This document shows, piece by piece, positions 2,122-63,056 of a DNA stretch of 64,000 bases (positions within the stretch are counted from its first letter, which is position 1; each line of letters opens with the position of its first letter). The notes under the pieces were generated by a model that was not told where the DNA came from, did no database searches, and was given only the letters and a program-made list of their open reading frames with translations. A program made the position numbers and the translations under genes. The DNA comes from Larkinella rosea (GTDB lineage Bacteria > Bacteroidota > Bacteroidia > Cytophagales > Spirosomataceae), in the NCBI RefSeq assembly GCF_003858635.1, contig NZ_RQJO01000015.1, positions 744,001-808,000 of the forward strand, written 5' to 3'.

Positions 2122-2202
2122 CAGGAACGGAGGAAGGAGGGAGAGGAGTTACCATCTGCTTTCTTCCTTTTGCCTTTTCTCCCTTATTTTTCTCTTCCTC
2201 TT
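2122..2202. repeat. Quasi-palindromic spacer, purine arm/pyrimidine arm (ACGGAGGA family)
   Basis: The complete gap between the two MFS genes is a purine-rich stretch (2124-2148, beginning GGAACGGAGGAAGGAGG) followed by a pyrimidine-rich stretch up to the next ATG. The arms can pair imperfectly. The word GAACGGAGGA recurs in the spacers at 4143 and 9671. Confidence 0.5.
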
Positions 2203-3435
2203 ATGACGACTTCTCCTTCCGTAACCTACCGCCCGTTATTTACTTTACCGGTTATTGTGGCGGCTTTGGGCTATTTCGTGGATGTCTACGATCTGCTGCT
2301 GTTCAACATTGTTCGCGTTCCGAGCCTGAAAGATTTGGGTCTCGACGAAAAACAGGTGTCGGTGATTGGTGGTACGGTTTTAAACTGGCAACAGGCTGGG
2401 TTGCTGCTGGGCGGTATTTTGTGGGGTATTCTGGGCGATAAACGCGGGCGGCTTTCGGTGCTGTTCGGCTCCATTATTACGTATTCCGTGGCTAACATTG
2501 CCTGCGGTTTTGTGCAGGACGCCAACACCTATGCGGTTTTGCGTTTCGTCGCAGGCCTGGGGCTGGCGGGCGAACTGGGCGCGGGCATTACGCTCGTCTC
2601 CGAAATTCTGCCGAAAGAACTGCGTGGCTACGGAACCTCCCTGATCGCGGGCGTGGGTCTGTTTGGGGCCGTTGTGGCCTATTTTACGGTGGTGCTGTTC
2701 AACTGGCGGACAACGTATTTCATCGGTGGCGGTTTGGGATTGCTGCTGCTGCTGTTGCGTGTATCGGTTTTTGAATCAGGGATGTTTCTGAAAATCAAGG
2801 AGCAAACCGTTCAGCGCGGTAATTTCTGGTCGCTGTTTTCCAACGGGAAACGCTTTCTGACGTACCTCCGCTGCATGGGGCTGGCCGTTCCAACGTATTT
2901 TGTCATTGGCATTCTGGCTACCTTCAGCAATGAATTCGGAAAAGCACTGGGCATTGCCGAACCGATAGCACCGGGCCGGGTCGTCATGTTTACGTATATT
3001 GGTATGGCCGTCGGTGACCTGATCAGCGGCCCGCTCAGCCAGTGGTTTCATTCCCGTCGGCAAGCAATCGGTGCGCTGATGACAATGAATCTGCTTTTTG
3101 TGGCGGTTTATTTGTTTGCCGGTATTTCGACAATGCCGGTTTTCTACGCGGTCTGCGTGGGACTCGGTTTTTCCATTGGCTACATCGCCCTGTTTCTGAC
3201 GGTTTCGGCCGAACACTTTGGCACCAACCTGCGGGCCACGGCCACCACGTCCATTGCCAACAACGTTCGGGCTACCACCTTGTTAACCATTCCGCTTTTT
3301 CAAACCCTCAAAGTATCTTTTGGGGTCATCAATGCAGCCGCCATGGTCGGCGCGATTTGTTTCGTCATCAGTTTCTGGTCGCTGGTAACATTGGACGAAA
3401 CGTACGGGAAAGACCTCAATTACACGGAACACTAA
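2203..3435 (+). CDS. MFS transporter (copy 2 of tandem pair)
   Basis: A 410-residue major facilitator, paralogue of the upstream gene, with the same GDKRGRLSVLFGSIITYS loop and the same C-terminal ending KDLNY. I chose the ATG at 2203 rather than the TTG at 2170, because the shorter form aligns with the start of copy 1 and the longer one would read through the pyrimidine arm of the spacer. Copy 2 lacks several residues of the loop after helix 3 that copy 1 has. Substrate unknown; duplicated transporters of this type often differ in specificity or expression, but that is inference. Confidence 0.87.
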   Translation: MTTSPSVTYRPLFTLPVIVAALGYFVDVYDLLLFNIVRVPSLKDLGLDEKQVSVIGGTVLNWQQAGLLLGGILWGILGDKRGRLSVLFGSIITYSVANIACGFVQDANTYAVLRFVAGLGLAGELGAGITLVSEILPKELRGYGTSLIAGVGLFGAVVAYFTVVLFNWRTTYFIGGGLGLLLLLLRVSVFESGMFLKIKEQTVQRGNFWSLFSNGKRFLTYLRCMGLAVPTYFVIGILATFSNEFGKALGIAEPIAPGRVVMFTYIGMAVGDLISGPLSQWFHSRRQAIGALMTMNLLFVAVYLFAGISTMPVFYAVCVGLGFSIGYIALFLTVSAEHFGTNLRATATTSIANNVRATTLLTIPLFQTLKVSFGVINAAAMVGAICFVISFWSLVTLDETYGKDLNYTEH

Positions 3436-3436
3436 A

Positions 3437-3598
3437 CTATGATTACGGTGATGAACTATGATGTTTATGATAGAATGTGATTGCGGTGATGTTAATGATG
3501 ATTTTAAAAAATTGATCTTAAAGTCCATCACAAACATCACTGTAATCATAGTCTTTCACCATAATCATAGGCTATTATAACCATCACTGTAATCATAG
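3437..3598. repeat. Long quasi-palindromic repeat region (GATTACGGTGATG words)
   Basis: CTATGATTACGGTGATG (3437-3453) pairs with CATCACTGTAATCATAG (3582-3598) with one mismatch in 17. Further copies of the same words lie between them (for example 3477-3493 and 3534-3552), so several alternative hairpins are possible. The region begins one base after the MFS stop codon. It probably ends transcription, but it has no classical T-run. The following 110 bases up to 3708 show nothing else clear. Confidence 0.7.
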
Positions 3599-3708
3599 TC
3601 CCGTTCATCCTTCTTTTCTGCCTTTTCTCCTAATTCGCCGTTTTGTCGGTGGGCTTCCTACATCTTTCTGGTGAATCTGAACAGTAGACAACAAACCTGT
3701 TAAACACC

Positions 3709-4134
3709 ATGAAAACGATTATCCGCACCGCCAGCGGTCTGTTGCTGGGTGCCCTTCTCTTGGTCGGAACGACCTCATTTGCGCAGACAGCCCCTGAAGA
3801 CAAACCCTTTCAAGTTGTCACCTATCCATCGGCAAATCCCCTGAAAGTGTGGGTGAACATCCAGAAAAATGATCCCGGCAGTAAAATCGTTGTTCGGTTG
3901 CGCGATCAGGAAAACCGGATCGTCTTTGCCGAAACCATGCCCCGGCAGCTTGATAAATACCGCCAACGATTCGATATGAGCGAAATGGCCGATGGCGCGT
4001 ATACCTTCCAGATCACGAATGGCAAGGAAACCGTCGAAAAATCATTCCAGCTAAAATCATCGGGTGTTCAGCAACGTACCACGCAACGACTGCTCACTGT
4101 GGTGCCGGTTACGGATCCACAGTCGGGAATGTAA
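3709..4134 (+). CDS. Small secreted beta-sandwich-like protein
   Basis: 141 residues with a clear signal peptide ending TTSFAQ (about residue 25). The mature part has alternating strands: VVTYPSANPLKVWVNIQK, KIVVRLRDQENRIVFAE, then a MADGAYTFQITNGKETVEKSFQL ending. This order (variable strand, 'LRDxxNRxxF', 'DGxYxxxxxNG') is shared with the protein at 15865, so they are distant paralogues. The pattern is like small Ig-like domains of periplasmic or secreted Bacteroidota proteins (DUF3244 type), but I cannot assign a family. It faces the FecR gene convergently and has its own promoter region. Confidence 0.75.
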   Translation: MKTIIRTASGLLLGALLLVGTTSFAQTAPEDKPFQVVTYPSANPLKVWVNIQKNDPGSKIVVRLRDQENRIVFAETMPRQLDKYRQRFDMSEMADGAYTFQITNGKETVEKSFQLKSSGVQQRTTQRLLTVVPVTDPQSGM

Positions 4135-4142
4135 GCCACAAA

Positions 4143-4204
4143 GGAATGAGAGAACGGAGGAGTGAATAAAGGGTTACCGGCGAAACCGTAACCTATTCAT
4201 TCCT
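4143..4204. terminator. Quasi-palindromic convergent terminator (ACGGAGGA family)
   Basis: Between the secreted-protein stop (4134) and the FecR stop (4205). GAATA-GGTTAC (4164-4177 with an AAG bulge) pairs with GTAACCTATTC (4188-4198). The left arm carries GAACGGAGGA and AATAAAGGG, both also present in the 9675 spacer. It could serve both converging genes. Confidence 0.5.
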
Positions 4205-4984
4205 TCACTCGTTTCTTGCCCAGAACGTGTAAAGCTGCGGCTTGACCTGACGCCGGACGAGTTGGGTTGATTTTTCGTCATATTCCGCCATTCCGCCCGG
4301 TTTCAGCGCATACTTCTTCATTTCGCCGAGCATTCCGGAAAAATAGATGACGAAATTAGCCTGTCCCTGTTCGACCACCACCCGCACCTTATTGTGTTGG
4401 TAATTGACATAAATCCGGGCTTTCTGGGCTTCGGTTACCACATGATCGGCGGTGTGAATCTGCAACCGATATCCGATGGGTTGCTCAGCGACCAGGACAA
4501 CGGCCTCACCGTCGAGCCAGATGCTGCGGTTTGGTCCCGACCAGTCGGACGAAACCCTCAACTTTGAATTTTTATTCAGTATAACCGCCGAATGGTCGGT
4601 TAATTCAACCCGCATGTACTGATCGGCTCCGGATTGGTAGATGACATCGGCGGGCAATTGCGCTTCGCGCAAAAACCGGATGCTGAGGCCAAAAATAATG
4701 ATACAGCCGACCCAGATGGCAATCCGGGCAATCTGTCGCCATACCGTTCGGTAGAGGGGCGGCTCAGGCTCCAGGGGGAGATCTTTGGTTTGTCGGGCAA
4801 TGCCCGCCCACATGCGCTGCCAATCGGGCGATTCGACACCAGCAACCGACGGATTGCTCCATTGCTTCCGCATCAGCCCGCGCAACCGCGATTCATTGTC
4901 CGGGTTCTGCAACCAGCCAATCACCCACTGTTCTTCTTCGGGGCTGCACTCGTTCCGGACATATTTAACCAACAACTCTTCCAT
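4205..4984 (-). CDS. FecR-like anti-sigma factor (short form)
   Basis: 259 residues. N-terminal cytoplasmic anti-sigma region with the typical MEELLVKYVRNECSPEEEQWVIGWLQNP start, one transmembrane helix (IAIWVGCIIIFGLSIRFL, about 88-105), then a periplasmic FecR domain whose core VELTDHSAVILNKNSKLRV is easily seen. It ends soon after this domain; the C-terminal DUF4974 part of longer family members seems absent. Known role of the family: holds the partner ECF sigma factor and releases it on a signal from a TonB-dependent receptor. The partner sigma gene lies directly upstream, but no receptor gene is adjacent, so the signal source is unknown. Confidence 0.85.
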   Translation of the reverse strand: MEELLVKYVRNECSPEEEQWVIGWLQNPDNESRLRGLMRKQWSNPSVAGVESPDWQRMWAGIARQTKDLPLEPEPPLYRTVWRQIARIAIWVGCIIIFGLSIRFLREAQLPADVIYQSGADQYMRVELTDHSAVILNKNSKLRVSSDWSGPNRSIWLDGEAVVLVAEQPIGYRLQIHTADHVVTEAQKARIYVNYQHNKVRVVVEQGQANFVIYFSGMLGEMKKYALKPGGMAEYDEKSTQLVRRQVKPQLYTFWARNE

Positions 4985-4995
4985 TACAATGAGTT

Positions 4996-5070
4996 GATGA
5001 GTGAATGATAGAATGAGTGAAAAGCCTACCGGATTCTATTTTTATTCACTCATTCTATCATTCACTCATT
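4996..5070. repeat. 26-bp-arm hairpin between sigma and anti-sigma genes
   Basis: Left arm 4996-5021 and right arm 5045-5070 match at 25 of 26 positions and contain GAATGATAGAATGAGTGAA. The element begins 5 bases after the sigma stop (in transcript direction) and ends 11 bases before the FecR start. The same word and the same flanking AAAATTAA occur in the element at 59618-59691. It would fold in the joint mRNA and could set the sigma to anti-sigma ratio. Confidence 0.85.
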
Positions 5071-5075
5071 CAAAA

Positions 5076-5618
5076 TTAATACGTATGTCGTTGAAAATAA
5101 GTGCCTAAGGTGTCGTAGGATTGATCCAGGTGATCTTCGATGGTTCGCGTAGAGAGGTTCATGCGATCCGCGATTTGTTGGGATGTATAGCCCTCGTGGC
5201 GGCTGAGCAGATAAATTTCCCGACGGCGCGGGGGCAGTTGCGAAACCGCCTGTTGATACAGCAATTCCAGCTCCTGATACAGCACCTGTTCCTCGGTATC
5301 GGTGCCCGATTGGGTGGTTAAACGTTGAAGAATTTCCTGTGGCTGACACTGGCTGTGCCGTTCGCGGAAGGCCGCCAGGACCAACCCATAGGTCATCGTA
5401 AATAAATACCCATTCAGGGGAATATCTTCATCAAGTGTACTCCGGCGTTCCCAAAGGGTGGTAAATACATCGCTTACGATTTGCTGAGCGGTTTCCGGGG
5501 ATTTAAGAAAGCTGACGGTGAAATAATAAATCCGTTGAACATACCGGTCGTAGACCCGCCGAAAAGCGGTTGGGTCGGCGTTCCGTAGTTGTCGGAGAAG
5601 TGTTTGTTCAGCTTGCAT
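5076..5618 (-). CDS. ECF-type RNA polymerase sigma factor
   Basis: 180 residues with sigma region 2 (about 10-80: AFRRVYDRYVQRIYYFTVSFLKSPETAQQIVSDVFTTLWERR) and region 4 (about 115-175, helix-turn-helix in SQQIADRMNLSTRTIEDHL). This is the usual Bacteroidota FecI-like class that directs polymerase to genes of uptake systems. It is paired with the FecR gene downstream. No SusC-type receptor is next to it, so its targets must lie elsewhere or include itself. The 435-base upstream region has dyads that may regulate it. Confidence 0.9.
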   Translation of the reverse strand: MQAEQTLLRQLRNADPTAFRRVYDRYVQRIYYFTVSFLKSPETAQQIVSDVFTTLWERRSTLDEDIPLNGYLFTMTYGLVLAAFRERHSQCQPQEILQRLTTQSGTDTEEQVLYQELELLYQQAVSQLPPRRREIYLLSRHEGYTSQQIADRMNLSTRTIEDHLDQSYDTLGTYFQRHTY

Positions 5619-6053
5619 TCTTTACGCGTTTTTTTGATTTTGGTCTGATCGTTGTTTGTTGATTATCAGACACAGAGCTCTCCAAACTCAGTGGACAAAT
5701 TCCGAATATCCCGGTTCGGGATTTGCTCCTGTGTAATTTTCAGAACCTCCCGGTAGACGAAAAGAGTGACCATCGTCTTTGAAGACGTTGGAAGCAAATT
5801 AGCTATGCTGATCGGACTGAATGTGAGGGTAAATATACACAGAATTGTCAGAAATGCAGGGATTTGGTTTACCGTTAAGTAAACTAACGCGGTGGAGGAC
5901 CGTTCCATCAGTAAAGAAAAGTTCAGATTAGTTCAGGAGGTAATTACCGGTTTGAACTTACTAATTTTTTCGGTATCCTGCATACTTTTACCAAAAAAAC
6001 CGCCTAGTTTTATCGGTAATTGTCCTATTTTGGGTCTACAATAAACCACACGC
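5619..6053. other. Intergenic region with two perfect dyads, no convincing gene
   Basis: Divergent region between the sigma gene (minus) and the SCP2 gene (plus). It contains ATCCCGGTTCGGGAT (5708-5722, 6-bp arms) and CGTCTTTGAAGACG (5774-5787, 6-bp arms). An 80-codon minus frame at 5666-5908 spans both dyads, but its composition is AT-rich and its protein is unlike anything I know. A structured leader or operators for the sigma gene is the better reading. CTATTTTGGG near 6027-6036 resembles a Bacteroidota -7 box for SCP2. Confidence 0.4.
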
Positions 6054-6350
6054 ATGAATTTACAGGATTTCACAGACCAGATTCGCCAGCGGATCGGCAC
6101 CGAAAGCGGTTTCAATGCAACCGTTAAATTAGCTACGGATCAGGGCAGTATTTTTATCGACGGGCGGGAAAATCCACCGGTTGTTTCCAATGAAGATAAC
6201 GAAGCTGACTGCACCATCAAGGTTTCGCTGAGCGATTTGCAAAAACTGGGTACCGGCGAACTGAACCCGATGACGGCTTTTATGTTTGGTAAACTCAAAG
6301 TTCAGGGAGATATGGCGCTTGCGATGAAAATCGGGCAGAAATTGAGCTAA
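6054..6350 (+). CDS. SCP2 sterol-binding-domain protein
   Basis: 98 residues, a single SCP2 domain with the typical ending NPMTAFMFGKLKVQGDMALAMKIGQKL and the strand motif ADCTIKVSLSDLQKLGTGELNP. The family binds lipids or acyl chains in a small alpha/beta cavity. It is cytoplasmic, with no signal peptide. It stands alone, 49 bases before the oxidoreductase gene, and could be cotranscribed with it. The lipid ligand is unknown. Confidence 0.88.
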   Translation: MNLQDFTDQIRQRIGTESGFNATVKLATDQGSIFIDGRENPPVVSNEDNEADCTIKVSLSDLQKLGTGELNPMTAFMFGKLKVQGDMALAMKIGQKLS

Positions 6351-7869: not shown

Positions 7870-8256
7870 TCAGGGTGCTTTCCGAACCGCAATTGCTTCG
7901 ATTTCGATCAGAAAACCGTAGTGCAATTGGTTGGTAGGAACCACAGCACGGGCGGGTTTGTGCTCACCGAAAAAGCCGGCATAAGCCGCATTGACCTGAT
8001 CCCAGAGCGCGATGTCGGCGATGTAAACCGTCGTTTTCAGGACGTGGGCGAGGTCGCTGCCGGCGGCATCCAGAATGGCCTTAACGTTCTCCAGCACCTG
8101 CCGGGTTTGCTCATCGATCGAACCGGTCAATTTTTCTTTGGTGACGGGATCAATCGGTAACTGGCCGGACACAAAAATGAGGTCGTTCCAGACGGTGGCC
8201 TGCGCATAATGCCCGGCTGCCAGCGGAGCGTTGGGCGTTTCGACGGTTTGAATCAT
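7870..8256 (-). CDS. ridA: RidA family reactive-intermediate deaminase
   Basis: 128 residues from the ATG at 8256; a TTG four codons upstream would run into the spacer hairpin and is less likely. The family hydrolyses reactive enamine/imine intermediates made by PLP enzymes. The active-site Arg lies in PARAVVP and the Glu in EIEAIAV. The N-terminal GHYAQATVWNDLIFVSGQLPIDP is the usual opening of the subunit, which works as a trimer in the cytoplasm. It lies downstream of pdxJ, whose product makes PLP, in the same direction with a hairpin between; the link is functionally sensible. Confidence 0.93.
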   Translation of the reverse strand: MIQTVETPNAPLAAGHYAQATVWNDLIFVSGQLPIDPVTKEKLTGSIDEQTRQVLENVKAILDAAGSDLAHVLKTTVYIADIALWDQVNAAYAGFFGEHKPARAVVPTNQLHYGFLIEIEAIAVRKAP

Positions 8257-8270
8257 GAGTTCAGACAAGA

Positions 8271-8335
8271 GAGGTTAGACAAGAGAAGTGAGACGGGGAA
8301 TAAAGACTTCTGTCTCACTTCTCTTGTCTAACCTC
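8271..8335. repeat. 24-bp perfect inverted repeat between pdxJ and ridA (GACAAGAGA family)
   Basis: Arms 8271-8294 and 8312-8335 are perfectly complementary over 24 bases around a 17-base loop. The arm contains TTAGACAAGAGAAGTGAGAC. The outer end touches the pdxJ stop codon (8337). Related words occur at 57792 and 63011. In the transcript it lies between two genes of the same direction, so it can be a terminator, a processing site or a 3'-end stabiliser. Confidence 0.9.
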
Positions 8336-8336
8336 T

Positions 8337-9050
8337 TTATTCTAATTCTTTCAGATACAGTTGAATCGTGTTTTCCAGGCCCAGGTACAAGGCATCGCTG
8401 ATCAGCGCGTGACCGATCGATACTTCGAGCAAACCGGGGATATTCTGGTGAAAATACCGCAGATTTTCCAGACTTAAATCGTGACCGGCATTAAGACCAA
8501 TTCCTAAATCATTGGCTACGTTGGCGGCCTGAACAAACGGCGCAATGGCGGCTTCCCGGTTTTCGGCGTAGTGGGCGGCATACGGTTCGGTGTAGAGTTC
8601 GATCCGGTCGGTGCCGGTTTCTTTGGCGCCCCGTACCATCGCTTCGTCGGCATCGACAAAAATCGAAACGCGAATGCCCAATCGCTGAAAATGATTGACC
8701 AGGTTCGTCAGGTGAACCCGGTGTTTGATCGTATCCCAGCCCGCGTTCGACGTAATGGCATCCACGGCATCGGGCACGAGCGTCACCTGTTCGGGCCGGG
8801 TGCGCGTCACCAGTTCAATAAACCGCTCGTCGGGATTGCCTTCAATGTTGAACTCGGTGGATACCACTTTTTTGAGATGCAGCACGTCGTTGTAGCGGAT
8901 GTGCCGCTCGTCGGGGCGCGGATGAACCGTAATTCCTTCCGCGCCGAACCGTTCGCAATCGAGGGCCACTTTGACCACATCCGGATTATTCCCTCCCCGC
9001 GAATTCCGCAGCGTGGCAATTTTATTGATATTAACGCTCAGACGAGTCAT
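8337..9050 (-). CDS. pdxJ: Pyridoxine 5'-phosphate synthase
   Basis: 237 residues covering the whole PdxJ family: [20 protein letters not shown] start, [15 protein letters not shown] phosphate/substrate loop, and the C-terminal [13 protein letters not shown] and [13 protein letters not shown] segments. The enzyme joins 1-deoxy-D-xylulose 5-phosphate and 3-amino-2-oxopropyl phosphate into pyridoxine 5'-phosphate, the ring-closing step of DXP-dependent vitamin B6 synthesis. A cytoplasmic TIM barrel. It is followed by the 24-bp hairpin and ridA. Confidence 0.97.
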
Positions 9051-9210
9051 TTTTCAGTGAAGAGTTATGAGTTAAGCGTGATGAGTTATGAATAAGCCCA
9101 TCCTGTTTTCGTAACTTTGCCAACCTTTCAATGGTTCCGGGAGTAAAGTTACTTTTAACTAATAACCGCACGGGCGGCCCCGTTTTAATTTTTAACTAAA
9201 ATATGAAATT

Positions 9211-9663
9211 ATGGCGCTGAAACAACAAATCGATACCGATATCAAGGAGGCCATGAAAGCCCGGGAACAGGATCGGTTGCGGGCTTTGCGGGCGATTAAA
9301 TCGCTGATTTTGCTGGAAGAAACCAAAGACGGATCGGCCGGGGGCGACATCAAACCCGAAGATGAACTGAAGTTACTGACCAAAGCCGTCAAACAGCGCC
9401 GGGATTCGGCCGATATTTACCGTACGCAGGGCCGCGAAGACCTTTTGCAGGCTGAACTGGCCGAAATTGCCGTTATCGAACATTATTTGCCGAAACAACT
9501 TTCGGAAGACGAACTGAAAACCCGCGTACAGGCTATCATTGAAAAAGTGGGCGCCAAGGGTCCGCAGGATCTGGGAAAAGTAATGGGCGTGGCAACGAAA
9601 GAACTGGCGGGACAAGCCGAAGGGAAAGCCATTTCCGCTTTGGTAAAGAATTTGCTGAGTTAA
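9211..9663 (+). CDS. yqeY: GatB/YqeY domain protein
   Basis: 150 residues matching the stand-alone YqeY family in length and sequence (MALKQQIDTDIKEAMKAREQDRLRALRAIKSLIL start; ALVKNLL end). It is related to the C-terminal tRNA-binding tail domain of GatB, the amidotransferase subunit. Its cellular role is not settled; binding of tRNA or tRNA-like RNA is an inference from the domain. A TAACTTTG box at 9112-9119 could be its promoter. The cvpA-like gene follows after a large hairpin. Confidence 0.9.
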   Translation: MALKQQIDTDIKEAMKAREQDRLRALRAIKSLILLEETKDGSAGGDIKPEDELKLLTKAVKQRRDSADIYRTQGREDLLQAELAEIAVIEHYLPKQLSEDELKTRVQAIIEKVGAKGPQDLGKVMGVATKELAGQAEGKAISALVKNLLS

Positions 9664-9674
9664 AGGAAAAGAAC

Positions 9675-9754
9675 GGAGGAAAGGAAGAGAGGAGAAAAGG
9701 AATAAAGGGAGTATTTCTCTTCTTTCCTCCGTTCCTACTCTCTTCCTTTCCTCC
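9675..9754. repeat. 17-bp-arm hairpin between yqeY and cvpA (ACGGAGGA family)
   Basis: GGAGGAAAGGAAGAGAG (9675-9691) is exactly complementary to 9738-9754. The strand is almost all purine before the centre and almost all pyrimidine after it. It shares GAACGGAGGA and AATAAAGGG with the element at 4143. It fills nearly the whole gap between two genes of the same direction. Confidence 0.85.
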
Positions 9755-9763
9755 TTGAGAAAA

Positions 9764-14064: not shown

Positions 14065-14754
14065 ATGAAACGATTTACACTGGCAGGAATAGCCGCGCTG
14101 GCCTTTTTTATCATTCAAACCGCATCGGCTCAGGTGCAGGTCGGCTTCCGGGCCGGAGCCAATTGGGGGGCAGTTTCCAAACCCGAATTTCTAGACAAGT
14201 TCTCGCCAACTTTCCGCCTGTCGGCTGGCCCAACGGGGGCGGTTTTTCTGGAAGCTCCGGTCAGCAACCGCGTCAGTATCCGCACCGAGGTGTCGTATGT
14301 TCAGAAAGGGTTCGTGATTGATGAAGGCTTTAAACTGCCGATTGGCAACTGGGATTTGCCACTGGGAGCGCGGGTAGCCTACCAGACACGGTATCTGGAA
14401 TTACCGGTTTTGGCCAAAATCAACCTGAACGACGGTCCGGTTCAGGTCTATATGCTGGCAGGTGCTGCGGCCGGTTACGCCATGAACGGCCGCATTCGCA
14501 CCCGAACCAGTGGTATTTTCCGGAGCCAACCCTTCGATATGGACATGAATCTGAATACAATGGGTTATAACCGCTGGGATTTTAGCGCCATTGGCGGCCT
14601 CGGTTTGAGCGCCGAAGTTGGGCCGGGAAAATTCTTCGTCGAAACGCGCTACGAACACGGTTTTTCGCGCCAGTATGATCTTCCGTTCATTCAGCTTCCC
14701 ATCCGCAACCGCGGGCTAAGTGCCTCGATTGGGTATGCGTTTGCAATAAATTAA
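14065..14754 (+). CDS. Outer-membrane beta-barrel protein (PorT-like family)
   Basis: 229 residues from the ATG at 14065, where a good signal peptide begins (MKRFTLAGIAALAFFIIQTASAQ). The frame is open 27 codons further upstream but those residues are hydrophilic. After the signal come alternating strands starting VQVGFRAGANWGAV, RVSIRTEVSYVQKGFVID, and ending SASIGYAFAIN, the pattern of the 8-stranded OMP_b-brl_2 domain common in Bacteroidota. Located in the outer membrane; function unknown. Its stop codon falls within the first arm of a palindromic spacer. Confidence 0.88.
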   Translation: MKRFTLAGIAALAFFIIQTASAQVQVGFRAGANWGAVSKPEFLDKFSPTFRLSAGPTGAVFLEAPVSNRVSIRTEVSYVQKGFVIDEGFKLPIGNWDLPLGARVAYQTRYLELPVLAKINLNDGPVQVYMLAGAAAGYAMNGRIRTRTSGIFRSQPFDMDMNLNTMGYNRWDFSAIGGLGLSAEVGPGKFFVETRYEHGFSRQYDLPFIQLPIRNRGLSASIGYAFAIN

Positions 14755-14828
14755 CAATGAATAATTAACAATGAACCACGAGCCATGATAATACACAAAT
14801 CAGTATATGCTGTTCATTATTCATTGTT
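14753..14828. repeat. Quasi-palindromic 3'-end element (AACAATGAATAAT words)
   Basis: AACAATGAATAAT (14753-14765) is the exact complement of 14816-14828. A second pairing register exists because the word TTAACAATGAA is repeated in the left arm. It starts inside the stop codon of the OMP gene. Confidence 0.75.
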
Positions 14829-14889
14829 AATTGTTCATTAATATTTAAAAAGAAAGTTTGTGTGTGTTTAAGGGTTAGAGTTGAACTGG

Positions 14890-24963: not shown

Positions 24964-25050
24964 GATTTTTCGTTGACCAAAACTAACAAAATCTAACCTT
25001 GTATCGTCAAATCAAGTTAATAGTATTAGTTTATCGTTTACAGTTTAGCG

Positions 25051-25133
25051 TTTATGGTTTTCAGTCTATCATTACAACAGATGTATCGGCCTGATTACGA
25101 GATTCGTACGATTGAAACCATAAATCATAAACG
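25051..25133. repeat. Quasi-palindrome in divergent promoter region (GTTTATGGTTT words)
   Basis: TTTATGGTTTTCA (25051-25063) pairs with TGAAACCATAAA (25113-25124) with one bulge; CGTTTAT and ATAAACG extend it. It lies between the ceramidase-like gene and mlaE, which diverge. The repeated word GTTTA(T/C) occurs several times in the left arm. Confidence 0.5.
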
Positions 25134-30687: not shown

Positions 30688-30839
30688 CAGCCCACGGTTT
30701 TAACCGTGGATTTACGGAAAATCTAGCACCCATAAAAACCGTTTTAACGGTTTGAAATTCCGGATCACAAAACCGTTAAAACGGTTTCCAAACCTCAATT
30801 TTCCACGTGATGCGAATCCACGGTTGAAACCATGGGCTG
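30688..30839. repeat. Nested palindromic element, CCACGG class, copy 1
   Basis: Outer arms 30688-30711 and 30816-30839 are complementary at 22 of 24 positions, and each arm is itself a palindrome (CCACGGTTTTAACCGTGG). Inside are two 18-base palindromes, AAACCGTTTTAACGGTTT (30736-30753) and AAACCGTTAAAACGGTTT (30770-30787). The element fills most of the gap between two plus-strand genes. The outer arms recur at 41631-41759. Confidence 0.9.
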
Positions 30840-41630: not shown

Positions 41631-41759
41631 TTTATCAGCCCACGGTTTGAACCGTGGGACCATCAGACGGCAATTTTCCGCCAATAAAAACCGTTTAAAC
41701 GGTTTCTGGATGGGAGCCAGATTTTCCGTTTTCCACGGTTAAAACCGTGGGCTGATAAA
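41631..41759. repeat. Nested palindromic element, CCACGG class, copy 2 (between sigma and fecR)
   Basis: Outer arms (41631-41658 and 41732-41759) share TTTATCAGCCCACGGTTT and are nearly perfect complements; each arm contains a CCACGGTT-AACCGTGG palindrome. Inside is AAACCGTTTAAACGGTTT (41688-41705). Copy 1 is at 30688-30839. This copy lies 25 bases after the sigma stop codon. The remaining bases 41460-41630 show no gene. Confidence 0.9.
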
Positions 41760-56296: not shown

Positions 56297-57793
56297 ATGA
56301 AGCAACTCTACCTGATTATTCTGACCGGTTTTCTTTCCTCGCCCGCGGTTTTTGCCCAATCGCCCGCCCGGCATCAAAGCCGGTTATACGCAGAAGTGGG
56401 TGCTTTGGCTTCTTCCACCGACCGGACGCCTTTCTGGCTCCGGGCCAACCAGTATGGTAGTATACCGTTATCGGCTCCGTTCGGAACGCTCCGGGTTGGG
56501 CTGGCCGGAACGGTGCTGATCAGCGATACGACCACGGGGCGTTATCGCACCCGGCCCCAGCGTGCCTGGACGTTGCAATACCAGGCCGAAGCGGTTGGGA
56601 ACGCCGGAAAGTCGAGCCAGTTGCTGCTGCCGGAAGGCTACGTAAAAGTGATGCATCGCGGGATTGAACTGGTTGCGGGACGTCGGCGCGAGGTAATCGG
56701 TCTGGTGGATTCAACGCTTTCGTCGGGCTCATATGCCTGGTCGGGCAACGCACTGCCCATTCCAAAAGTCCAGTTTGGGACGCGGGGATTTGTGCCGCTC
56801 GGACGCCGGGGCTGGCTGTCGATCAACGGTTTTATCGCGCACGGCTGGTACGCCAAAACCTGGTATTTGCGGCATTCGTTTCTGCACCAGAAATCGCTGC
56901 TTTTCCGGATTGGAAAGCCGACCGCGACGCTTCGGTTCTACGCCGGAATCAACCACAATGTGCAGTGGGGCGGCCAATCCGATTACATCGATCCCAAATT
57001 TGCGGTAAATGGCAAACTGCCCGGTCGCCTGGCCGATTTCCCAAATGTGTTGTTTGCCATCCGGACCAACGGCCTGAACAATGATCGTCTGACGTCGTTC
57101 GATTACGTCAATTTATACGGAAATCACCTCGGTAGCATCGACTTCGGGGGGGAACTGCGGTTTCCGGCCGTCAATGTCTTTCTTTATCACCAGCACGCTT
57201 TTGATGATGTGACGGGGATGTTTTTCAAAAATCTTCCCGATGGCCTGAGCGGTATCCGATTGCGGAACAATCGTCCGGGTGCTGCCGGTTTTCAATTGCA
57301 TGAAGTTTTGCTGGAATTTCTGACTACGTTGAGCCAGAGCGGTCCCACTTTGTACCAAACCAACAAACCCTGGAAAGGGGCCGATAATTACTTCAACAAT
57401 TCGCAATACCGCGAAGGCTGGACGTATCAGGACCGGGTCATCGGCACGCCGTTTCTGACCCGTCGACAGGATATTCAGGCCGCCTACCAAAACTCCAGCG
57501 ATTGGGCCATCGTCAATAACCGGGTTCAGGTTTTTCATGCCGCCCTGCGGGCAACGGTGGCGAAGCAAATGGACCTACGGGTCAAAGTATCTTACAGCCG
57601 GAACTACGGTATTCCGGAAGTTTTTCTGGCAGGAACGCCCAAACAACTGTCGACCTGGGTGCAGGTCGGATTTCCGCTCCGCTGGCTCGGCGGGTCCTAC
57701 CTGACAGCCGCTCTGTCTGTCGATGCAGGTCAACTCTACGACAATGCGGCAGGCGGTTTGATCGGATTGAGCAAAACGATCTGGCAGAAATAG
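56297..57793 (+). CDS. Capsule assembly Wzi family outer-membrane protein
   Basis: 498 residues. Signal peptide MKQLYLIILTGFLSSPAVFAQ, then a beta-barrel with the Wzi family pattern YAEVGALASSTDRTPFWLRANQYGSIPLS, LVAGRRREVIGLVDSTLSSGSYAWSGNALPIPKVQFG and HNVQWGG. In other bacteria Wzi binds capsule polysaccharide at the cell surface. Bacteroidota have many Wzi-like proteins outside capsule loci, and no capsule gene is near here, so its partner is unknown. Confidence 0.87.
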   Translation: MKQLYLIILTGFLSSPAVFAQSPARHQSRLYAEVGALASSTDRTPFWLRANQYGSIPLSAPFGTLRVGLAGTVLISDTTTGRYRTRPQRAWTLQYQAEAVGNAGKSSQLLLPEGYVKVMHRGIELVAGRRREVIGLVDSTLSSGSYAWSGNALPIPKVQFGTRGFVPLGRRGWLSINGFIAHGWYAKTWYLRHSFLHQKSLLFRIGKPTATLRFYAGINHNVQWGGQSDYIDPKFAVNGKLPGRLADFPNVLFAIRTNGLNNDRLTSFDYVNLYGNHLGSIDFGGELRFPAVNVFLYHQHAFDDVTGMFFKNLPDGLSGIRLRNNRPGAAGFQLHEVLLEFLTTLSQSGPTLYQTNKPWKGADNYFNNSQYREGWTYQDRVIGTPFLTRRQDIQAAYQNSSDWAIVNNRVQVFHAALRATVAKQMDLRVKVSYSRNYGIPEVFLAGTPKQLSTWVQVGFPLRWLGGSYLTAALSVDAGQLYDNAAGGLIGLSKTIWQK

Positions 57794-57861
57794 ACAAGAG
57801 AGAATAGACGTGAGACAGGAGAAATGAAACTCATCCGGTTAAAATCTTTTTTCTCTTGTCT
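57792..57861. repeat. Quasi-palindromic 3'-end element (GACAAGAGA family)
   Basis: AGACAAGAGA (57792-57801) pairs with TCTCTTGTCT (57852-57861); the flanks TGAGACAGGAG and CTTTTGTCTCCC extend it imperfectly. It starts at the stop codon of the Wzi gene. Shares TAGACAAGAGA with 8271-8335 and 63011-63056. The rest of the gap to 58109 holds only a weak promoter. Confidence 0.65.
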
Positions 57862-58001
57862 GACCTCTTTTGTCTCCCAACAAAATTTAATCCCGGATTT
57901 TCCGTTGTAGGATTGCTTACCAGAATGGAACGGGTGTTTACCACTTAAGCACCTTTTTGCACGTTTCAGTTTATGGTTTTCCCAGTTGAGTGTTTTACCG
58001 A

Positions 58002-58109: not shown

Positions 58110-58634
58110 GTGAAGAAAACAATATACTGTTCTGCCCTATTTGTCATCCTTGCCGTAGCCCCCGGTTTTTCGCAGATCGATCGAAAAATTACTGTTATGC
58201 TCAACATGGGGTTGGGAGTGCAATCGTATTCGGTGGGCGGATTGTGCAACGGAGCTTCTTTTGAACTGGGATTTACCGATAAAATCAGCGCTGGGGGTTA
58301 TTTTGATTATGCCCTGACTGGCACCAAGTTTGGCGACCACCGCTGGAAGGCGCAGTTTGTCAACTACGGCGTCCGGGGTTCCTATCATCTGGCCAGTGCG
58401 CTGGGAATCGGAAGTAATAAATTTGACCCGTATGCGGGGCTGTCGGTGGGAACCCGCACGGTCATTCGCCGGGAACGGCTGGACCAGAATCCATATTCAA
58501 AGCTCCACGCCCGCGGTTTTTTTCCGGGCGTGCATATGGGCGGTTTTTACCATTTCAGCCAGAAAATCGGCGGGTTTGCCGAACTGGGCTGGGGCATTGC
58601 CATCCTCCGGATGGGAATAACCGGTAAGTTTTAA
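58110..58634 (+). CDS. Small outer-membrane beta-barrel protein
   Basis: 174 residues from GTG at 58110, where a signal peptide begins (KKTIYCSALFVILAVAPGFSQ). Alternating strands follow: KITVMLNMGLGVQSY, CNGASFELGFTDKISAGGYFDYALTG, VNYGVRGSYHLASALG, PYAGLSVGTRTVIR, ending GWGIAILRMGITGKF. This is the size and pattern of 8-stranded barrels of the OMP_b-brl family. Function unknown. A nested palindromic element fills the gap to the convergent tatC gene. Confidence 0.78.
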   Translation: MKKTIYCSALFVILAVAPGFSQIDRKITVMLNMGLGVQSYSVGGLCNGASFELGFTDKISAGGYFDYALTGTKFGDHRWKAQFVNYGVRGSYHLASALGIGSNKFDPYAGLSVGTRTVIRRERLDQNPYSKLHARGFFPGVHMGGFYHFSQKIGGFAELGWGIAILRMGITGKF

Positions 58635-58636
58635 TC

Positions 58637-58723
58637 GTACCCACGGACTTTAGTCCGTGAAATCTTGGATGATTTATAGTAGCCCTTATAGGCTAGATCT
58701 TACGGACTAAAGTCCGTGGGTAC
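58637..58723. repeat. Nested palindromic element, ACGGACT class, copy 1
   Basis: The 22-base ends (58637-58658 and 58702-58723) are perfect inverted repeats; each contains the palindrome ACGGACTTTAGTCCGT or its complement. The centre has a small TAGCC/GGCTA stem. The element fills the gap between two converging stop codons: 2 bases remain on each side. Confidence 0.95.
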
Positions 58724-58725
58724 GT

Positions 58726-59601
58726 TTAATCTTCGTAACCGTCGGTTTTCATCAACGCCTGTTCTTCTTTCAGCCGCAGCCGCTGAACGTAGCCCGAAAC
58801 CCAGATACTGACTTCGTAGAGCAAAACCAGTGGAATGGCGACCAGAATCTGGCTGTACACATCCGGCGAAGGCGTGATAATCGCAGCAACCACCAGAATA
58901 ACGACCAGCGCATGACGGCGGTATTCCCGCATGAACTTGGGCGTTAGAATACCGACTTTCGACAACACAAACGCCACAATCGGCATCTGGAACGTCAGGG
59001 CGCAACCGAGCGTCAGCGTGGCCAGCGTCGAGATGTACGACGTAATATCGAACTCGTTCACAATGCTCGGATCGAGTTGGTAATTTGCCAGGAAGTTGAT
59101 CGCCAGTGGCGAAACGATGTAATAGCCGAACAGGACGCCCAGCATGAAGAGCGTGGTGACGTAAAAAACCGCTCCCCGTGCGGCCCGGCGCTCGGAGAGT
59201 TTCAGCCCCGGCATAATAAACCGCCAGAGTTCCCAGAAGGCATACGGAAATGCAAACAGTAAACCGACCATCAGCGAGGACGTCAGGGCCGTTGTGAACT
59301 GACCGGCCATCTCGCGGCTCTGCAGAGTGAAATTCAGTTTTTCGATGCACAAATCGGCAAAACCGGTTTTTTTCGACAGGATGCACATCATGCGGTAGGT
59401 CCAGAAATCCGTTTTGGAAGGCGCCAGAATAACGGAATCGTAAATTTCCCGGATAAAAATAAAGGCGAGTACCGCAAAGATGGCAATCGAGCCAATGGCC
59501 CGGACAATGTGCCACCGAAGCTCCTCTAAATGCTCAAGAAAGGTCATTTCACCTTCCTCCACCTCGTTCTCGCTATCAAATTCCTGGTCTATGGGCTTCA
59601 T
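58726..59601 (-). CDS. tatC: Sec-independent protein translocase TatC
   Basis: 291 residues, six transmembrane helices. The N-terminal cytoplasmic motif FLEHLEELRWHIVRAIGSIAIFAVLAF is the Tat signal-peptide binding region; FPYAFWELWRFIMPGLKLSERRAA is the typical first-cytoplasmic-loop region. It is the receptor and core of the twin-arginine system, and the window has two Tat-type substrates (6400 and 42770). No tatA gene is adjacent. A 29-bp hairpin separates it from glyA. Confidence 0.96.
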   Translation of the reverse strand: MKPIDQEFDSENEVEEGEMTFLEHLEELRWHIVRAIGSIAIFAVLAFIFIREIYDSVILAPSKTDFWTYRMMCILSKKTGFADLCIEKLNFTLQSREMAGQFTTALTSSLMVGLLFAFPYAFWELWRFIMPGLKLSERRAARGAVFYVTTLFMLGVLFGYYIVSPLAINFLANYQLDPSIVNEFDITSYISTLATLTLGCALTFQMPIVAFVLSKVGILTPKFMREYRRHALVVILVVAAIITPSPDVYSQILVAIPLVLLYEVSIWVSGYVQRLRLKEEQALMKTDGYED

Positions 59602-59617
59602 TTAACTTTTTAATGAG

Positions 59618-59691
59618 TGAATGATAGAATGAGTGAATAGCTTCGCCAGTTCTTTGCTTCCTGCGAAGCTATTCACTCATTCTATCATTCA
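59618..59691. repeat. 29-bp perfect inverted repeat between glyA and tatC (GAATGATAGAATGAGTGAA family)
   Basis: Arms 59618-59646 and 59663-59691 are perfect complements, loop of 16 bases. It contains GAATGATAGAATGAGTGAA as the element at 4996-5070 does. It lies 3 bases after the glyA stop and ends 16 bases before tatC. Confidence 0.95.
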
Positions 59692-59694
59692 AAA

Positions 59695-60987: not shown

Positions 60988-61040
60988 AAATAAACGGGTT
61001 GCCGAAGCGATTGGTTATTTTCGTAATAGGATAACAGTTT

Positions 61041-61111
61041 ACGTACCTACGGACTAAAGTCCGTATCTCTTTAATTTTGATAGCAATACGGACTTTAATC
61101 CGTAGGTACGT
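61041..61111. repeat. Nested palindromic element, ACGGACT class, copy 2
   Basis: Arms 61041-61066 and 61086-61111 match at 25 of 26 positions. Each contains ACGGACT-AGTCCGT (one arm with one change). Shares ACGGACTAAAGTCCGT and the GTACC/GGTAC ends with 58637-58723. It lies upstream of glyA, downstream of the AraC gene. Confidence 0.95.
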
Positions 61112-61151
61112 AGTACAAAAGTACGGAGAAAAATAGCATTCTGGTTGTCTT

Positions 61152-62021
61152 CTACTTATTATGTTGAAGCGACTGGTATTTCAGCGGTGTGGTGCCGTTG
61201 TGCAGTTTAAATTGGCGGTGAAAATGCGAAATATTATTGAAACCGCATTCCAGCCCCACCTGGCTGATGCTCAGATCCGACTGCATCAGCAATTTCCGGG
61301 CGTGGCTGATTCTCAGCTCGTTCAGGTATTCGATAAACGATTTGCGGGTTCTTTTCCGGAAATACCGGCAAAAAGCCGCCGGAGCCATCCCGGCCACCGA
61401 CGCCATGTCGTCGACCCGGATTTCTTCCCGGAAATGAGCAAGCATAAAATCCAGCACCCGTTTCATCCGCTCGGTTTCGGCTTCGCTGGCTTTCAGTTCG
61501 TAGTTATCGCTAGCCAGCATGACCGCATTTGGGTCGTCGGCCAGTTGCTGAAGCAGGTAGAGCAGCCGGAGCAGCCGCACCAGGCCATCGCAGTGTAGCA
61601 GACCTTCAACGGCGGCTTTGACGCCCTCCACTTTGTCGCACCCGAAATGCAAACCGTAACGGGCGCGGTTTAGCAAGGCCATGAGTGGTTGTGTTTCAGG
61701 GAGTTGAGGTAGTAAGGTGTCGCCTAATGACTGCGCAAACTGCACGACGATGGCTTCGGCTTTCAGCTCCGAACCCGGCTGGTAATAGTCGTCGTCGTTG
61801 CGCCAGAAGTGCGGCAATCCCGGCCCCAAAAGCACCAGGTCCCCCGCGTCGAAAGGTTCGACATGATCGCCGACAAACCGTTTGCCATGACTGCTGACAA
61901 TATACGTCAATTCGTATTCGGGATGAAAATGCCAGGGGGCGTCGAAAAACGGTAACTCTACGTGCATCACTCTTAGAGAATTGTGATCTCCAAGTTCAAT
62001 TTTTTCAAATAATGCTTTCAC
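61152..62021 (-). CDS. AraC family transcriptional regulator
   Basis: 289 residues from GTG at 62021 (VKALFEKIELGDHNSLRV), which is preferred to a TTG 17 codons upstream. N-terminal cupin sensor domain (LPFFDAPWHFHPEYELTYIVSSHGKRFVGDHV), then two helix-turn-helix motifs of AraC at the C-terminus (RVDDMASVAGMAPAAFCRYFRKRTRKSFIEYLNELRISHARKLL and ISQVGLECGFNNISHFHRQFK). It is divergent from the dioxygenase-like gene at 62166, with 144 bases between, so it probably controls that gene. Ligand likely a sugar or acid. Confidence 0.93.
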   Translation of the reverse strand: MKALFEKIELGDHNSLRVMHVELPFFDAPWHFHPEYELTYIVSSHGKRFVGDHVEPFDAGDLVLLGPGLPHFWRNDDDYYQPGSELKAEAIVVQFAQSLGDTLLPQLPETQPLMALLNRARYGLHFGCDKVEGVKAAVEGLLHCDGLVRLLRLLYLLQQLADDPNAVMLASDNYELKASEAETERMKRVLDFMLAHFREEIRVDDMASVAGMAPAAFCRYFRKRTRKSFIEYLNELRISHARKLLMQSDLSISQVGLECGFNNISHFHRQFKLHNGTTPLKYQSLQHNK

Positions 62022-62165
62022 AACATGCAGTATTTTTACTCTCAAGGAGTAATTAGGGGAACAAAAAGTCAAAATTATACACTTATTGGCATAATAATGA
62101 AATTTTTACAAGATAATATTGAACCAATTTTGTAACACTAATTATTCCTAAACCCGTTAAATTTT

Positions 62166-63002
62166 ATGCAAGTAACCGTCGATAACCCTTCTTTGCTGAA
62201 ACAGTTGGATGAGGAGTATGCCGTCAGCCCGGAAGCGATTGCCTTTTATCGGGAGAACGGTTACGTGAAGTTAAAAGACGTGCTCAGCCCGGAAGTGCTC
62301 CACTATTACGGGGACATCATTACCGGACTGGTTTTGAAGCTGAACACGCTGACCAAATCGATGGAGGAACGGACGACGTATGAGCGGGCCTTTCTCCAGA
62401 TCATGAACCTCTGGCGGGAAGACAAAACCGCCAGAGAGTTCGTTTTTTCGCGTCGCCTGGCCAAAATCGCGGCTGATCTGATGGGCGTCGATGGCGTTCG
62501 ACTTTACCACGACCAGGCGCTTTACAAAGAACCATCGGGCGGTTTTACGCCCTGGCACGCCGACCAGTTTTACTGGCCGTTGTCATCGCCCAAAACCGTT
62601 ACCGTCTGGATTCCGCTGCAGGACACACCGATGGAAATGGGACCGCTGGCGTTTGCCGAACAGAGTCAGGGCGTGGAAATTGGGCGTAATATCGAAATCA
62701 GCGACGAAAGCGAGCGGTTATTGGCCGACGAATTGACCAAGCTGAATTTTAACATCAACGACACGCCTTTTGAACTGGGTGAGGTAAGTTACCACGCCGG
62801 ATGGACGTTCCACCGCGCCGGACCGAACACCTCCGGCACCCCGCGCAAAGTGATGACGATGATTTACATGGATCAGGATCAGACAATTACTAAACCCTTA
62901 AACTCTTATCAGGAAGCTGACTGGACGACGTGGCTGGAAAGTTACCCCATCGGGAGCAAACCCGAAAGCTCGCTGAATCCGCTTTTGTTTGTAAGAGAGT
63001 AA
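62166..63002 (+). CDS. Phytanoyl-CoA dioxygenase (PhyH) family protein
   Basis: 278 residues. Fe(II)/2-oxoglutarate jelly-roll fold: AFYRENGYVKLKDVLSPE start, metal motif HxD in TPWHADQFYWPL (about residue 135), second His in WTFHRAGPN and 2-oxoglutarate Arg in TPRKVMTMIYMD. PhyH-family enzymes hydroxylate many small molecules; the substrate here is unknown. It stands divergent to the AraC gene, which suggests substrate-induced expression. Confidence 0.9.
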   Translation: MQVTVDNPSLLKQLDEEYAVSPEAIAFYRENGYVKLKDVLSPEVLHYYGDIITGLVLKLNTLTKSMEERTTYERAFLQIMNLWREDKTAREFVFSRRLAKIAADLMGVDGVRLYHDQALYKEPSGGFTPWHADQFYWPLSSPKTVTVWIPLQDTPMEMGPLAFAEQSQGVEIGRNIEISDESERLLADELTKLNFNINDTPFELGEVSYHAGWTFHRAGPNTSGTPRKVMTMIYMDQDQTITKPLNSYQEADWTTWLESYPIGSKPESSLNPLLFVRE

Positions 63003-63010
63003 AGAGGATA

Positions 63011-63056
63011 GACAAGAGAGTAAAGACCAGAAAAATTTTGTCTTTATTCTCTTGTC
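63011..63056. repeat. Quasi-palindromic 3'-end element (GACAAGAGA family)
   Basis: GACAAGAGAGTAAAGAC (63011-63027) pairs with GTCTTTATTCTCTTGTC (63040-63056), one G-T pair in 17. It begins 8 bases after the PhyH stop. Related to 8271-8335 and 57792-57861. Confidence 0.85.

What the first reader, a model, noticed from the sequence alone, without database searches (positions are those of the whole stretch)
2122..63056. Recurrent quasi-palindromic spacers built from low-complexity words
At least eleven intergenic spacers (about 2122, 3437, 4143, 4996, 8271, 9675, 14753, 25051, 57792, 59618, 63011) hold long inverted repeats whose arms are almost simple-sequence words. Three word groups recur at distant loci: GAACGGAGGA (2122, 4143, 9675), GACAAGAGA (8271, 57792, 63011) and GAATGATAGAATGAGTGAA (4996, 59618). 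Arms stay complementary although the sequence varies between copies, which suggests that template switching or hairpin-based correction copies one arm to the other. Most start within a few bases after a stop codon and fill the gap to the next gene. Ordinary terminators (14890, 16264, 21278) in the same window look different. I know of no description of such a family.
Basis: partly seen in the sequence, partly recalled or inferred. Interest (0 to 1): 0.75.

Follow-up and report, generated by a model that had tools for sequence, protein, structure and literature searches.

The report
Seven-base-repeat hairpins between bacterial genes
Many gene-to-gene gaps in this bacterium and its relatives hold long DNA hairpins built from imperfect seven-base repeats whose two arms change together and whose loops flip between species, which points to a DNA copying process that keeps the arms matched.

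Summary
The window is from a Larkinella-like bacterium (Bacteroidota; same genus as L. knui). The low-complexity hairpins are real: in 464 kb, intergenic inverted repeats with loops over 8 nt number 35, against 0-1 per shuffle. The 'words' are degenerate tandem units, mostly of 7 nt (autocorrelation peaks at lags 7, 14, 21). Arms begin a median of 4 nt after a stop codon, and the 5' arm is poor in C. Orthologous gaps keep a hairpin while its sequence changes. Both-sided paired changes (1 to 11 per species pair) exceed expectation about 9- to 80-fold in eight of nine pairs. Between two close species 6 of 22 orientable loops are inverted, and whole hairpins are exchanged for others while flanks stay. 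One word forms a family of dozens of copies with strong covariation. Parts are known: cyanobacterial 7-bp STRR hairpins, Nostoc trnL P6b stems, template switching. New is the genome-wide, many-word Bacteroidota form with loop inversion and hairpin exchange.

The parts
3437..3596 (.). word hairpin (CTATGATTACGGTGATG type) between genes 2170-3435(+) and 3709-4134(+)
   Evidence: inverted repeat; G004 holds a cleaner 27-bp hairpin of the same word; model R2 hits 3468-3558, E 0.0018
4986..5073 (.). word hairpin, GAATGAGT/GAATGATA octamer units, 25-bp perfect arms, 23-nt loop; fills the gap between gene 5076-5618(-) and gene 4205-4984(-)
   Evidence: RNA fold z -8.6; orthologues with co-changed arms in G002, G003, G007
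8258..8343 (.). word hairpin, AGACAAG/AGAAGTG heptads, between genes 8337-9050(-) and 7870-8268(-)
   Evidence: RNA fold z -10.6; same word in G002-G007, loop inverted between G003 and G007
9664..9756 (.). word hairpin, GGAGGAAAGGAAG word, right after the stop of gene 9211-9663(+)
   Evidence: RNA fold z -3.9; the same gap holds an AATGGTT hairpin in G004, G002, G003, G007 and a REP-like hairpin in G006
14749..14846 (.). word hairpin, AATTAAC/AATGAAT heptads, convergent gap
   Evidence: RNA fold z -6.0; orthologues use other words
25043..25132 (.). weaker inverted repeat GTTTAGCGTTTATGGTTT / AAACCATAAATCATAAAC in a divergent gap
   Evidence: score 21, 18-nt arms, 54-nt loop; of seven relatives shown only G004 has one at that threshold
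57792..57876 (.). word hairpin, AGACAAGAGAGAATAGACGTGAGACAGGAG, right after the stop of gene 56297-57793(+)
   Evidence: no hairpin called in the orthologous gap of G003, G007 and G002
59618..59691 (.). word hairpin, 29-bp perfect arms TGAATGATAGAATGAGTGAATAGCTTCGC, 16-nt loop
   Evidence: RNA fold z -11.3; 52 matches in the own genome (itself and both strands included), best paralogue 91% identical over 85 nt
63003..63067 (.). word hairpin, AGACAAGAGAGTAAAGAC, right after the stop of gene 62166-63002(+)
   Evidence: RNA fold z -8.1
4141..4204 (.). weak hairpin with GAACGGAGGA word, convergent gap
   Evidence: RNA fold z -3.5; not called by the inverted-repeat scan; near-identical in G004, gaps of 19-46 nt with other sequence in seven relatives, one with its own 12-bp hairpin
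2122..2203 (.). purine run / pyrimidine run with GAACGGAGGA; not a significant hairpin
   Evidence: RNA fold z -1.46; the orthologous gap holds an AATGATAAATGTAAAATG-type hairpin in G002, G003, G004, G006 and G007

Best explanation
These are intergenic quasi-palindromes whose arms are degenerate tandem repeats, mostly of 7 nt. Shown: in Larkinella they sit mostly just downstream of stop codons; the two arms change together between species and between copies; loops invert; unit number and word change; a whole hairpin can be exchanged while its flanks stay; the gap keeps a hairpin even when the sequence is replaced. Inferred mechanism: during replication the nascent strand at a hairpin switches template to the opposite arm. 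Short switches rewrite one arm from the other (correction), and switches that cross the loop flip it. Slippage between units adds, removes and homogenises 7-nt words. The balance keeps a hairpin in place while its letters drift. Also inferred: position is set mainly by tolerance, in gaps at gene 3' ends where a transcribed stem does little harm and may act as an intercistronic mRNA element. I commit to DNA-level maintenance as the main cause of pairing, with RNA function secondary and unproven.
For: Co-change: pairs changed on both sides and still paired, observed against expected for independent arms: G003/G007 4 vs 0.18, G002/G003 4 vs 0.05, G002/G007 1 vs 0.02, own/G003 9 vs 0.80, own/G007 11 vs 0.91, own/G002 5 vs 0.36, G004/G003 9 vs 0.93, G004/G007 5 vs 0.57; own/G004 0 vs 0.05 with one hairpin. 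Loops: G003/G007 27 hairpin pairs examined, 16 same, 6 inverted, 5 undetermined; one has 45-nt arms identical in both species around an inverted loop. Inverted loops lie in hairpins with better arms (Mann-Whitney p 0.008). Period: lag 7 0.51 (z 15.8), lag 14 0.53 (z 12.2), lag 21 0.55 (z 14.1) in 49 arms; 21 REP arms z 0.2 at lag 7; 13 other arms z 2.8. Family: 20 copies in G007, 94.6% of cells paired, 20 of 43 pairs with both-sided change, 64 cells against 20.4 shuffled, 0 of 500 shuffles as high; slid controls 39.9-45.5% paired. Gap-level persistence: own hairpin gaps have one in G003 in 11 of 13 against 11 of 102 other gaps, p 6e-8; in G007 12 of 13 against 9 of 105. Mismatches in the sense strand: G.U 68, A.C 54 (p 0.24), near what a strand-symmetric DNA process gives. 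Position (own, G003, G004): 61 hairpins in 411 gaps with a gene 3' end against 4 in 110 divergent gaps, p 0.001.
Against: Template switching was not observed, only its expected products. In the less redundant set (own+G003) G.U exceeds A.C, 41 to 23 (p 0.03), a hint of RNA-level selection. The published intrastrand-switch argument predicts G-C over C-G and U-A over A-U; here the first holds (0.275 vs 0.129) but the second is reversed (A 0.358, T 0.238). Recurrence of the same words at many loci and in several genera needs copying between loci or a restricted vocabulary, which local switching does not explain; five of 20 paralogues in G007 share the loop motif CAATCCA(G/A) although their arms differ. 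Both-sided counts are small and conditioned on a hairpin being called in both species. G002, G003 and G007 are close, so events are not all independent. Own against G004 gave no inverted loop in two orientable pairs.
Confidence: 0.57

Rival explanations
1. Selection on RNA: the stems are intercistronic or 3'-end mRNA elements (RNase III sites, 3' stabilisers or translation insulators), and compensatory mutations are fixed by ordinary selection.
For: Arms start a median of 4 nt after the stop codon and are rare in divergent gaps; strong RNA folds; hairpin retained although words differ; G.U over A.C 41:23 in one set.
Against: G.U only 68 to A.C 54 over all 79 tandem hairpins. Loop inversion and exchange of a whole hairpin are not expected from stepwise compensation. 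In relatives the divergent gap that corresponds to window 9050-9211 has the same kind of arms flanking a promoter-like sequence, so the arms lie on opposite sides of it.
Confidence: 0.19
2. A dispersed mobile or copied repeat (MITE- or REP-like): hairpins are copied as units between gaps, and words are families of such elements.
For: 84 matches (both strands) of one hairpin in G007, many covering 85 or more of its 114 nt at 71-79% identity; 52 matches of 59618 in the own genome with shared outer ends; five of 20 G007 copies share a loop motif; exchange of a whole hairpin for one of another word class with flanks intact.
Against: Most loops differ between copies; arms vary freely with compensation, so no fixed end sequence is kept; the exchanged GGAGG hairpin at G007:C59:265942 has no other copy found in its genome. 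Target duplications and a transposase were not looked for. (Confidence raised from 0.15 on recheck because of the shared loop motif.)
Confidence: 0.18
3. They are intrinsic transcription terminators.
For: Hairpins at gene 3' ends. The T content after the stem (mean 3.6 of 10) is close to that of the short-loop repeats used as control (3.9), so this test does not separate them.
Against: 13 of 115 tails have six or more T, against 11 of 52 for short-loop repeats; arms are about 40% G+C; they fill gaps between co-directional genes to a median of 19 nt before the next start; a G003 gap has both such a hairpin and a classical terminator.
Confidence: 0.05
4. Chance or assembly artefact.
For: Most relatives' genomes are drafts, in which a loop between inverted arms could be misoriented if the assembly word length is below the arm length.
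Against: 35 against 0-1 in shuffles; arms of 20-45 nt are shorter than assembly word lengths as I recall them; inversions coexist with little-changed arms and flanks in several gaps.
Confidence: 0.01

Closest known systems
STRR (short tandemly repeated repetitive) sequences of filamentous cyanobacteria, including STRR hairpins near hupS-hupL and hoxW (PMC2670836, passages read)
   Same: usually 7-bp tandem units, intergenic, able to form hairpins, in one case close to the 3' end of a gene; suggested roles in transcript stability, translational coupling or termination
   Different: Bacteroidota; about fifteen words (my count); long arms of 20-45 bp; arm co-change, loop inversion and hairpin exchange documented here
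P6b stem-loop of the Nostoc tRNA-Leu intron (PMC4476775, abstract and passages read)
   Same: stem built from 7-nt units; of two unrelated words (TDNGATT, NNTGAGT) one has repeatedly replaced the other at one site while the stem stays
   Different: a single site inside a group I intron; here many intergenic sites and many words
Template switching between inverted repeats: yeast (PMC8604942, abstract read) and RNA stems (PMC8794818, abstract and passages read)
   Same: arm homogenisation, spacer inversion, multi-base compensatory change
   Different: described for yeast genes and for rRNA and microRNA; the parts I read do not treat a genome-wide class of bacterial intergenic repeats
TAACTGA heptamer repeats of Beggiatoaceae, cyanobacteria and five Bacteroidetes (PMC4679880, abstract and passages read)
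   Same: 7-nt units, intergenic, present in some Bacteroidetes
   Different: direct repeats, mostly just before start codons, one word, not paired arms
GGGNATC heptamer repeats of Xanthomonas and Nostoc (PMC4692102, abstract and passages read)
   Same: 7-nt intergenic repeats, some as inverted pairs
   Different: G-quadruplex type, one word type
REP / REPIN elements (PMC3733652 and PMC3116915, search listing and start of abstract only)
   Same: short dispersed extragenic palindromes; REP-like families also occur in this window
   Different: conserved core (recalled); here the core varies and the 7-nt period is diagnostic

Membership tests
STRR | degenerate tandem units of 7 bp | tested here: met
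   lags 7, 14, 21 at 0.51-0.55 in 49 arms; of the 27 arms (of 62 examined) with a clear period, 20 have 7, four have 8, two have 9, one has 10
STRR | mainly intergenic | tested here: met
   in own, 66 of 73 inverted repeats of all kinds (score >=28) are intergenic, 14 of these REP-like
STRR | membership in the published cyanobacterial word families | not tested
   consensus words were not collected from a source; no cyanobacterial genome searched
template-switched quasi-palindrome | arms homogenised (both-sided paired changes) | tested here: met
template-switched quasi-palindrome | spacer inversion | tested here: met
   6 of 22 orientable loops (27 examined) between G003 and G007
template-switched quasi-palindrome | switching by DNA polymerase seen directly | not testable with these tools
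   needs mutation accumulation or a reporter
REP/REPIN | conserved core sequence | tested here: not met
   orthologous and paralogous arms vary with compensation
REP/REPIN | associated RAYT transposase | not tested
   not searched
MITE | target-site duplication and fixed terminal repeats | not tested
   shared outer ends seen by eye in the GAATGAGT class; duplications not examined
intrinsic terminator | stem followed by a U run | tested here: inconclusive
   13 of 115 tails have >=6 T in 10 nt, against 11 of 52 for short-loop repeats; means 3.6 and 3.9
Rfam families | match above gathering score | tested here: not met
   no match in the window

The most novel reading that the evidence does not exclude
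Heptad hairpins are a self-perpetuating kind of intergenic DNA without a fixed sequence. What is inherited at a site is the grammar (7-nt units, C-poor 5' arm, paired arms, flippable loop), not the letters. Template switching both maintains hairpins and seeds them from other loci that share a word, so whole hairpins are exchanged between sites.
Probability: 0.25. Interest if true: 0.82.

Novelty: new variant of a known kind. Interest (0 to 1): 0.62.

Why it matters
Compensatory change is the usual proof of a functional RNA stem. Here a class of hairpins, extrapolated to a few hundred per genome (21 strict cases in 464 kb of 8.17 Mb), shows strong covariation together with loop inversion and near-equal G.U and A.C mismatches, which suggests that DNA copying alone can produce much of it. 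That would caution covariation-based RNA discovery in such genomes. It would also give natural, replicated sites for measuring template switching and for asking why tandem repeats in bacteria prefer 7 nt.

Tried and rejected
Stop codons in all frames as the purpose of the words: rejected. Stops exceed composition shuffles (139 against 112), but reversed arms hold as many (141), and the excess over unit-permuted arms is small (124; p 0.024 for the total, 0.11 for all three frames).

Loss of the palindrome nuclease SbcCD: not supported. SbcD is found in the own genome and in all eight other genus members searched; SbcC was not searched.

Rfam families: none in the window at gathering scores.

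Donor search for an exchanged hairpin: the GGAGG hairpin that stands in G007 where G003 has an AATGATG hairpin has no other copy found in G007, so the source of the exchange is unknown.

First covariance model: its structure was off by one column; the slide control showed it, and the corrected structure is used from then on. In one search the model is loose and at most 67 candidates per genome were scored: it also finds hairpins of other words, so its counts show long word hairpins in general, counted on both strands, and are lower bounds.

A first version of the persistence test used unequal thresholds for the two rows; it was redone with equal ones, and only the latter is used. Class counts of hairpins and of gaps use slightly different gene lists (all calls; genes of at least 180 nt).

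C-poor 5' arm: cause not found. The published template-switch explanation fits G over C but not A over T.

Literature: nine searches listed no description of this class in Bacteroidota; only open-licence papers are held, and I saw listings, abstracts and passages, no whole text. A 2026 survey of hairpins used perfect repeats with spacers of 0-8 bp (passages read), so most of these would be missed there.
Full report
What was checked. The window lies at G000:C13:744001-808000 of an 8.17-Mb, 18-contig genome. Genome G006 of the same genus has a contig of 602,378 bases, the length of the Larkinella knui contig that carries the same genes, so the source is taken to be a Larkinella species. Eight spacers were folded as RNA: seven beat all 200 shuffles (z -3.5 to -11.3), and 2120-2200 does not (z -1.46). 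In 464 kb around the window, intergenic inverted repeats with loops over 8 nt number 35, against 0 or 1 per dinucleotide shuffle. That count drops repeats with REP-like cores, which form separate families.

Anatomy. The arms are not arbitrary simple sequence. In 49 left arms from the own genome and G003, chosen by G over C excess and not by period, letters agree at distance 7 in 51%, at 14 in 53% and at 21 in 55% of positions (z 12 to 16); at other distances z is at most 2.7. Twenty-one REP arms show nothing at 7, and 13 other arms a weak 0.34 (z 2.8). Examples are AGACAAG-AGAAGTG, AATGTAA-AATGATG-AATGTTA and AGTTAAG-AATTAAG-AGTTAAA; the GAATGAGT class is an octamer. The 5' arm is poor in C. 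In 169 non-REP intergenic hairpins with loops over 8 nt from nine genomes (orthologous copies included) the matched left-arm bases are A 0.358, C 0.129, G 0.275, T 0.238, mean G over C skew 0.43; REP repeats give -0.16, short-loop repeats 0.03, genic ones 0.12. Of 20 further stretches fetched because they carry a word (19 from other genera, one from G005), nine hold a word hairpin, with skew 1.00 in eight and 0.65 in one; five show only other repeats and six a word without a hairpin.

Place. Genes were called with a simple home-made finder. In tandem gaps (79 word-type hairpins, nine genomes, orthologues included) the stem begins a median of 4 nt after the upstream stop codon and ends a median of 19 nt before the next start. 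In own, G003 and G004 together there are 61 in 411 gaps with a gene 3' end, against 4 in 110 divergent gaps.

Evolution between species. Orthologous gaps were extracted from up to eight genomes of the genus. The gap after gene 9211-9663 has a GGAGGAAAGG hairpin here, AATGGTT-word hairpins in G004, G002, G003 and G007, and a REP-like hairpin in G006. Own hairpin gaps have a hairpin in G003 in 11 of 13 cases against 11 of 102 other gaps, and in G007 in 12 of 13 against 9 of 105. Arms could be aligned in only some pairs, e.g. 6 of 11 for own/G003 and 18 of 25 for G003/G007. Where they can, changes on both sides that keep pairing exceed the expectation for independent arms in eight of nine species pairs (1 to 11 observed, 0.02 to 0.93 expected); the ninth has a single hairpin and none.

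Loops. Between G003 and G007 (median protein identity 97.8%), 27 hairpin pairs were compared: 16 loops have the same orientation, 6 are inverted and 5 cannot be told. In one, 45-nt arms are identical in both species and only the 13-nt loop is reversed and complemented, with one base changed. Inverted loops have better arms (p 0.008). G002 against G007 shows 2 inverted and 3 same of 10; G002 against G003 1 inverted and 5 same of 10; own against G004 none inverted, 2 same of 5.

Whole exchange. At G003:21525 an AATGATG hairpin faces a GGAGGAAAGG hairpin in G007 between matching flanks; at G003:236496 two different hairpins stand left of about 74 identical bases that include a classical terminator.

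Paralogues. One hairpin of G007 finds 84 matches in its genome, counted on both strands, many covering 85 or more of its 114 nt at 71-79% identity. Twenty of the best places were fetched and aligned: 94.6% of cells pair, 20 of 43 base pairs change on both sides, 64 cells do so against 20.4 in shuffles (0 of 500 as high), and slid controls pair 39.9-45.5%. The steadiest part is AAT(G) every 7 nt with variable triplets between. Loops vary, but five of the 20 share CAATCCA(G/A), which hints at copying between loci. A loose covariance model made from them finds matches at E <= 0.01 in 37 of 61 family genomes, 23 of 36 genera. Of 20 stored loci 15 were read: 14 hold a hairpin, with differing words, and one showed none at the point read. 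GAGTTAAGAGTTATGAG with up to one mismatch occurs in 21 of 81 family genomes, 346 times against 14 for the reversed string (my sums). GAATGAGTGAATGA occurs in 8 of 247 phylum genomes, 67 times in G184 and 7 in own, elsewhere once or twice, which is near the control's level. GACAAGAGA is enriched in the genus only.

Mechanism. Co-change, loop inversion and change of unit number are the products expected of template switching within a hairpin plus slippage between units. Yeast work reports arm homogenisation and spacer inversion (abstract), and RNA-stem work reports multi-base compensatory changes and rare loop inversions (passages). A test between DNA-level and RNA-level maintenance: RNA selection should tolerate G.U and not A.C in the transcribed strand. 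Over 79 tandem hairpins the counts are 68 and 54 (p 0.24); in the 38 from own and G003 they are 41 and 23 (p 0.03); in ten divergent ones, seven of them one orthologous gap, 3 and 12 (p 0.04). So RNA selection is at most a part. Polymerase slippage as the reason for units of 7 has been proposed (as cited in a paper read in passages).

Known relatives. Cyanobacterial STRRs are usually 7-bp repeats, lie in intergenic DNA and can form hairpins of unproven function (passages). The Nostoc trnL P6b stem is built from one of two unrelated 7-nt words, one of which has replaced the other several times. These are the nearest known things; the present class is best called a Bacteroidota variant with many words and well-marked DNA dynamics.

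Limits. Genome drafts may misorient loops, though the arms are short. Species pairs share history. Gene calls are approximate. No expression data were available.

Noticed in passing
58631-58729 and 61040-61112; 30688-30839 and 41631-41759: Two REP-like palindrome families with conserved cores (ACGTACCCACGGACTTTAGTCCGTG and CAGCCCACGGTTTTAACCGTGG), clearly distinct from the heptad hairpins and also dispersed in the own 464 kb.
   Followed up: partly
window 9050-9211 and the orthologous gaps in G001-G007: In this divergent gap the relatives have GAGTTATGAGTTAAGAG-type arms flanking a promoter-like TTTTGTAACTTTGCC (promoter motif recalled, not tested); the window copy has no called hairpin and, by eye, a GC-rich insert.
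   Followed up: partly
L219, L220, own C13:699707, G003:58191 gap: Short motifs GGCTGACGCA and CGGGCGGCCCCG recur inside or beside the loops of unrelated word hairpins, as if small inserts land in loops.
   Followed up: no
G003:120220 and G003:125128 gaps: Very long inverted repeats (52-58 nt arms, about 100-nt loops) with CCCC...GGGG cores, another family; at 125128 G007 holds a different repeat in its place.
   Followed up: no
G184 (67 copies of GAATGAGTGAATGA; loci L221-L230): An order-level relative has the same octamer word in arms separated by 55-167 nt, and one place (L228) with purine- and pyrimidine-style arms but no called pairing.
   Followed up: partly
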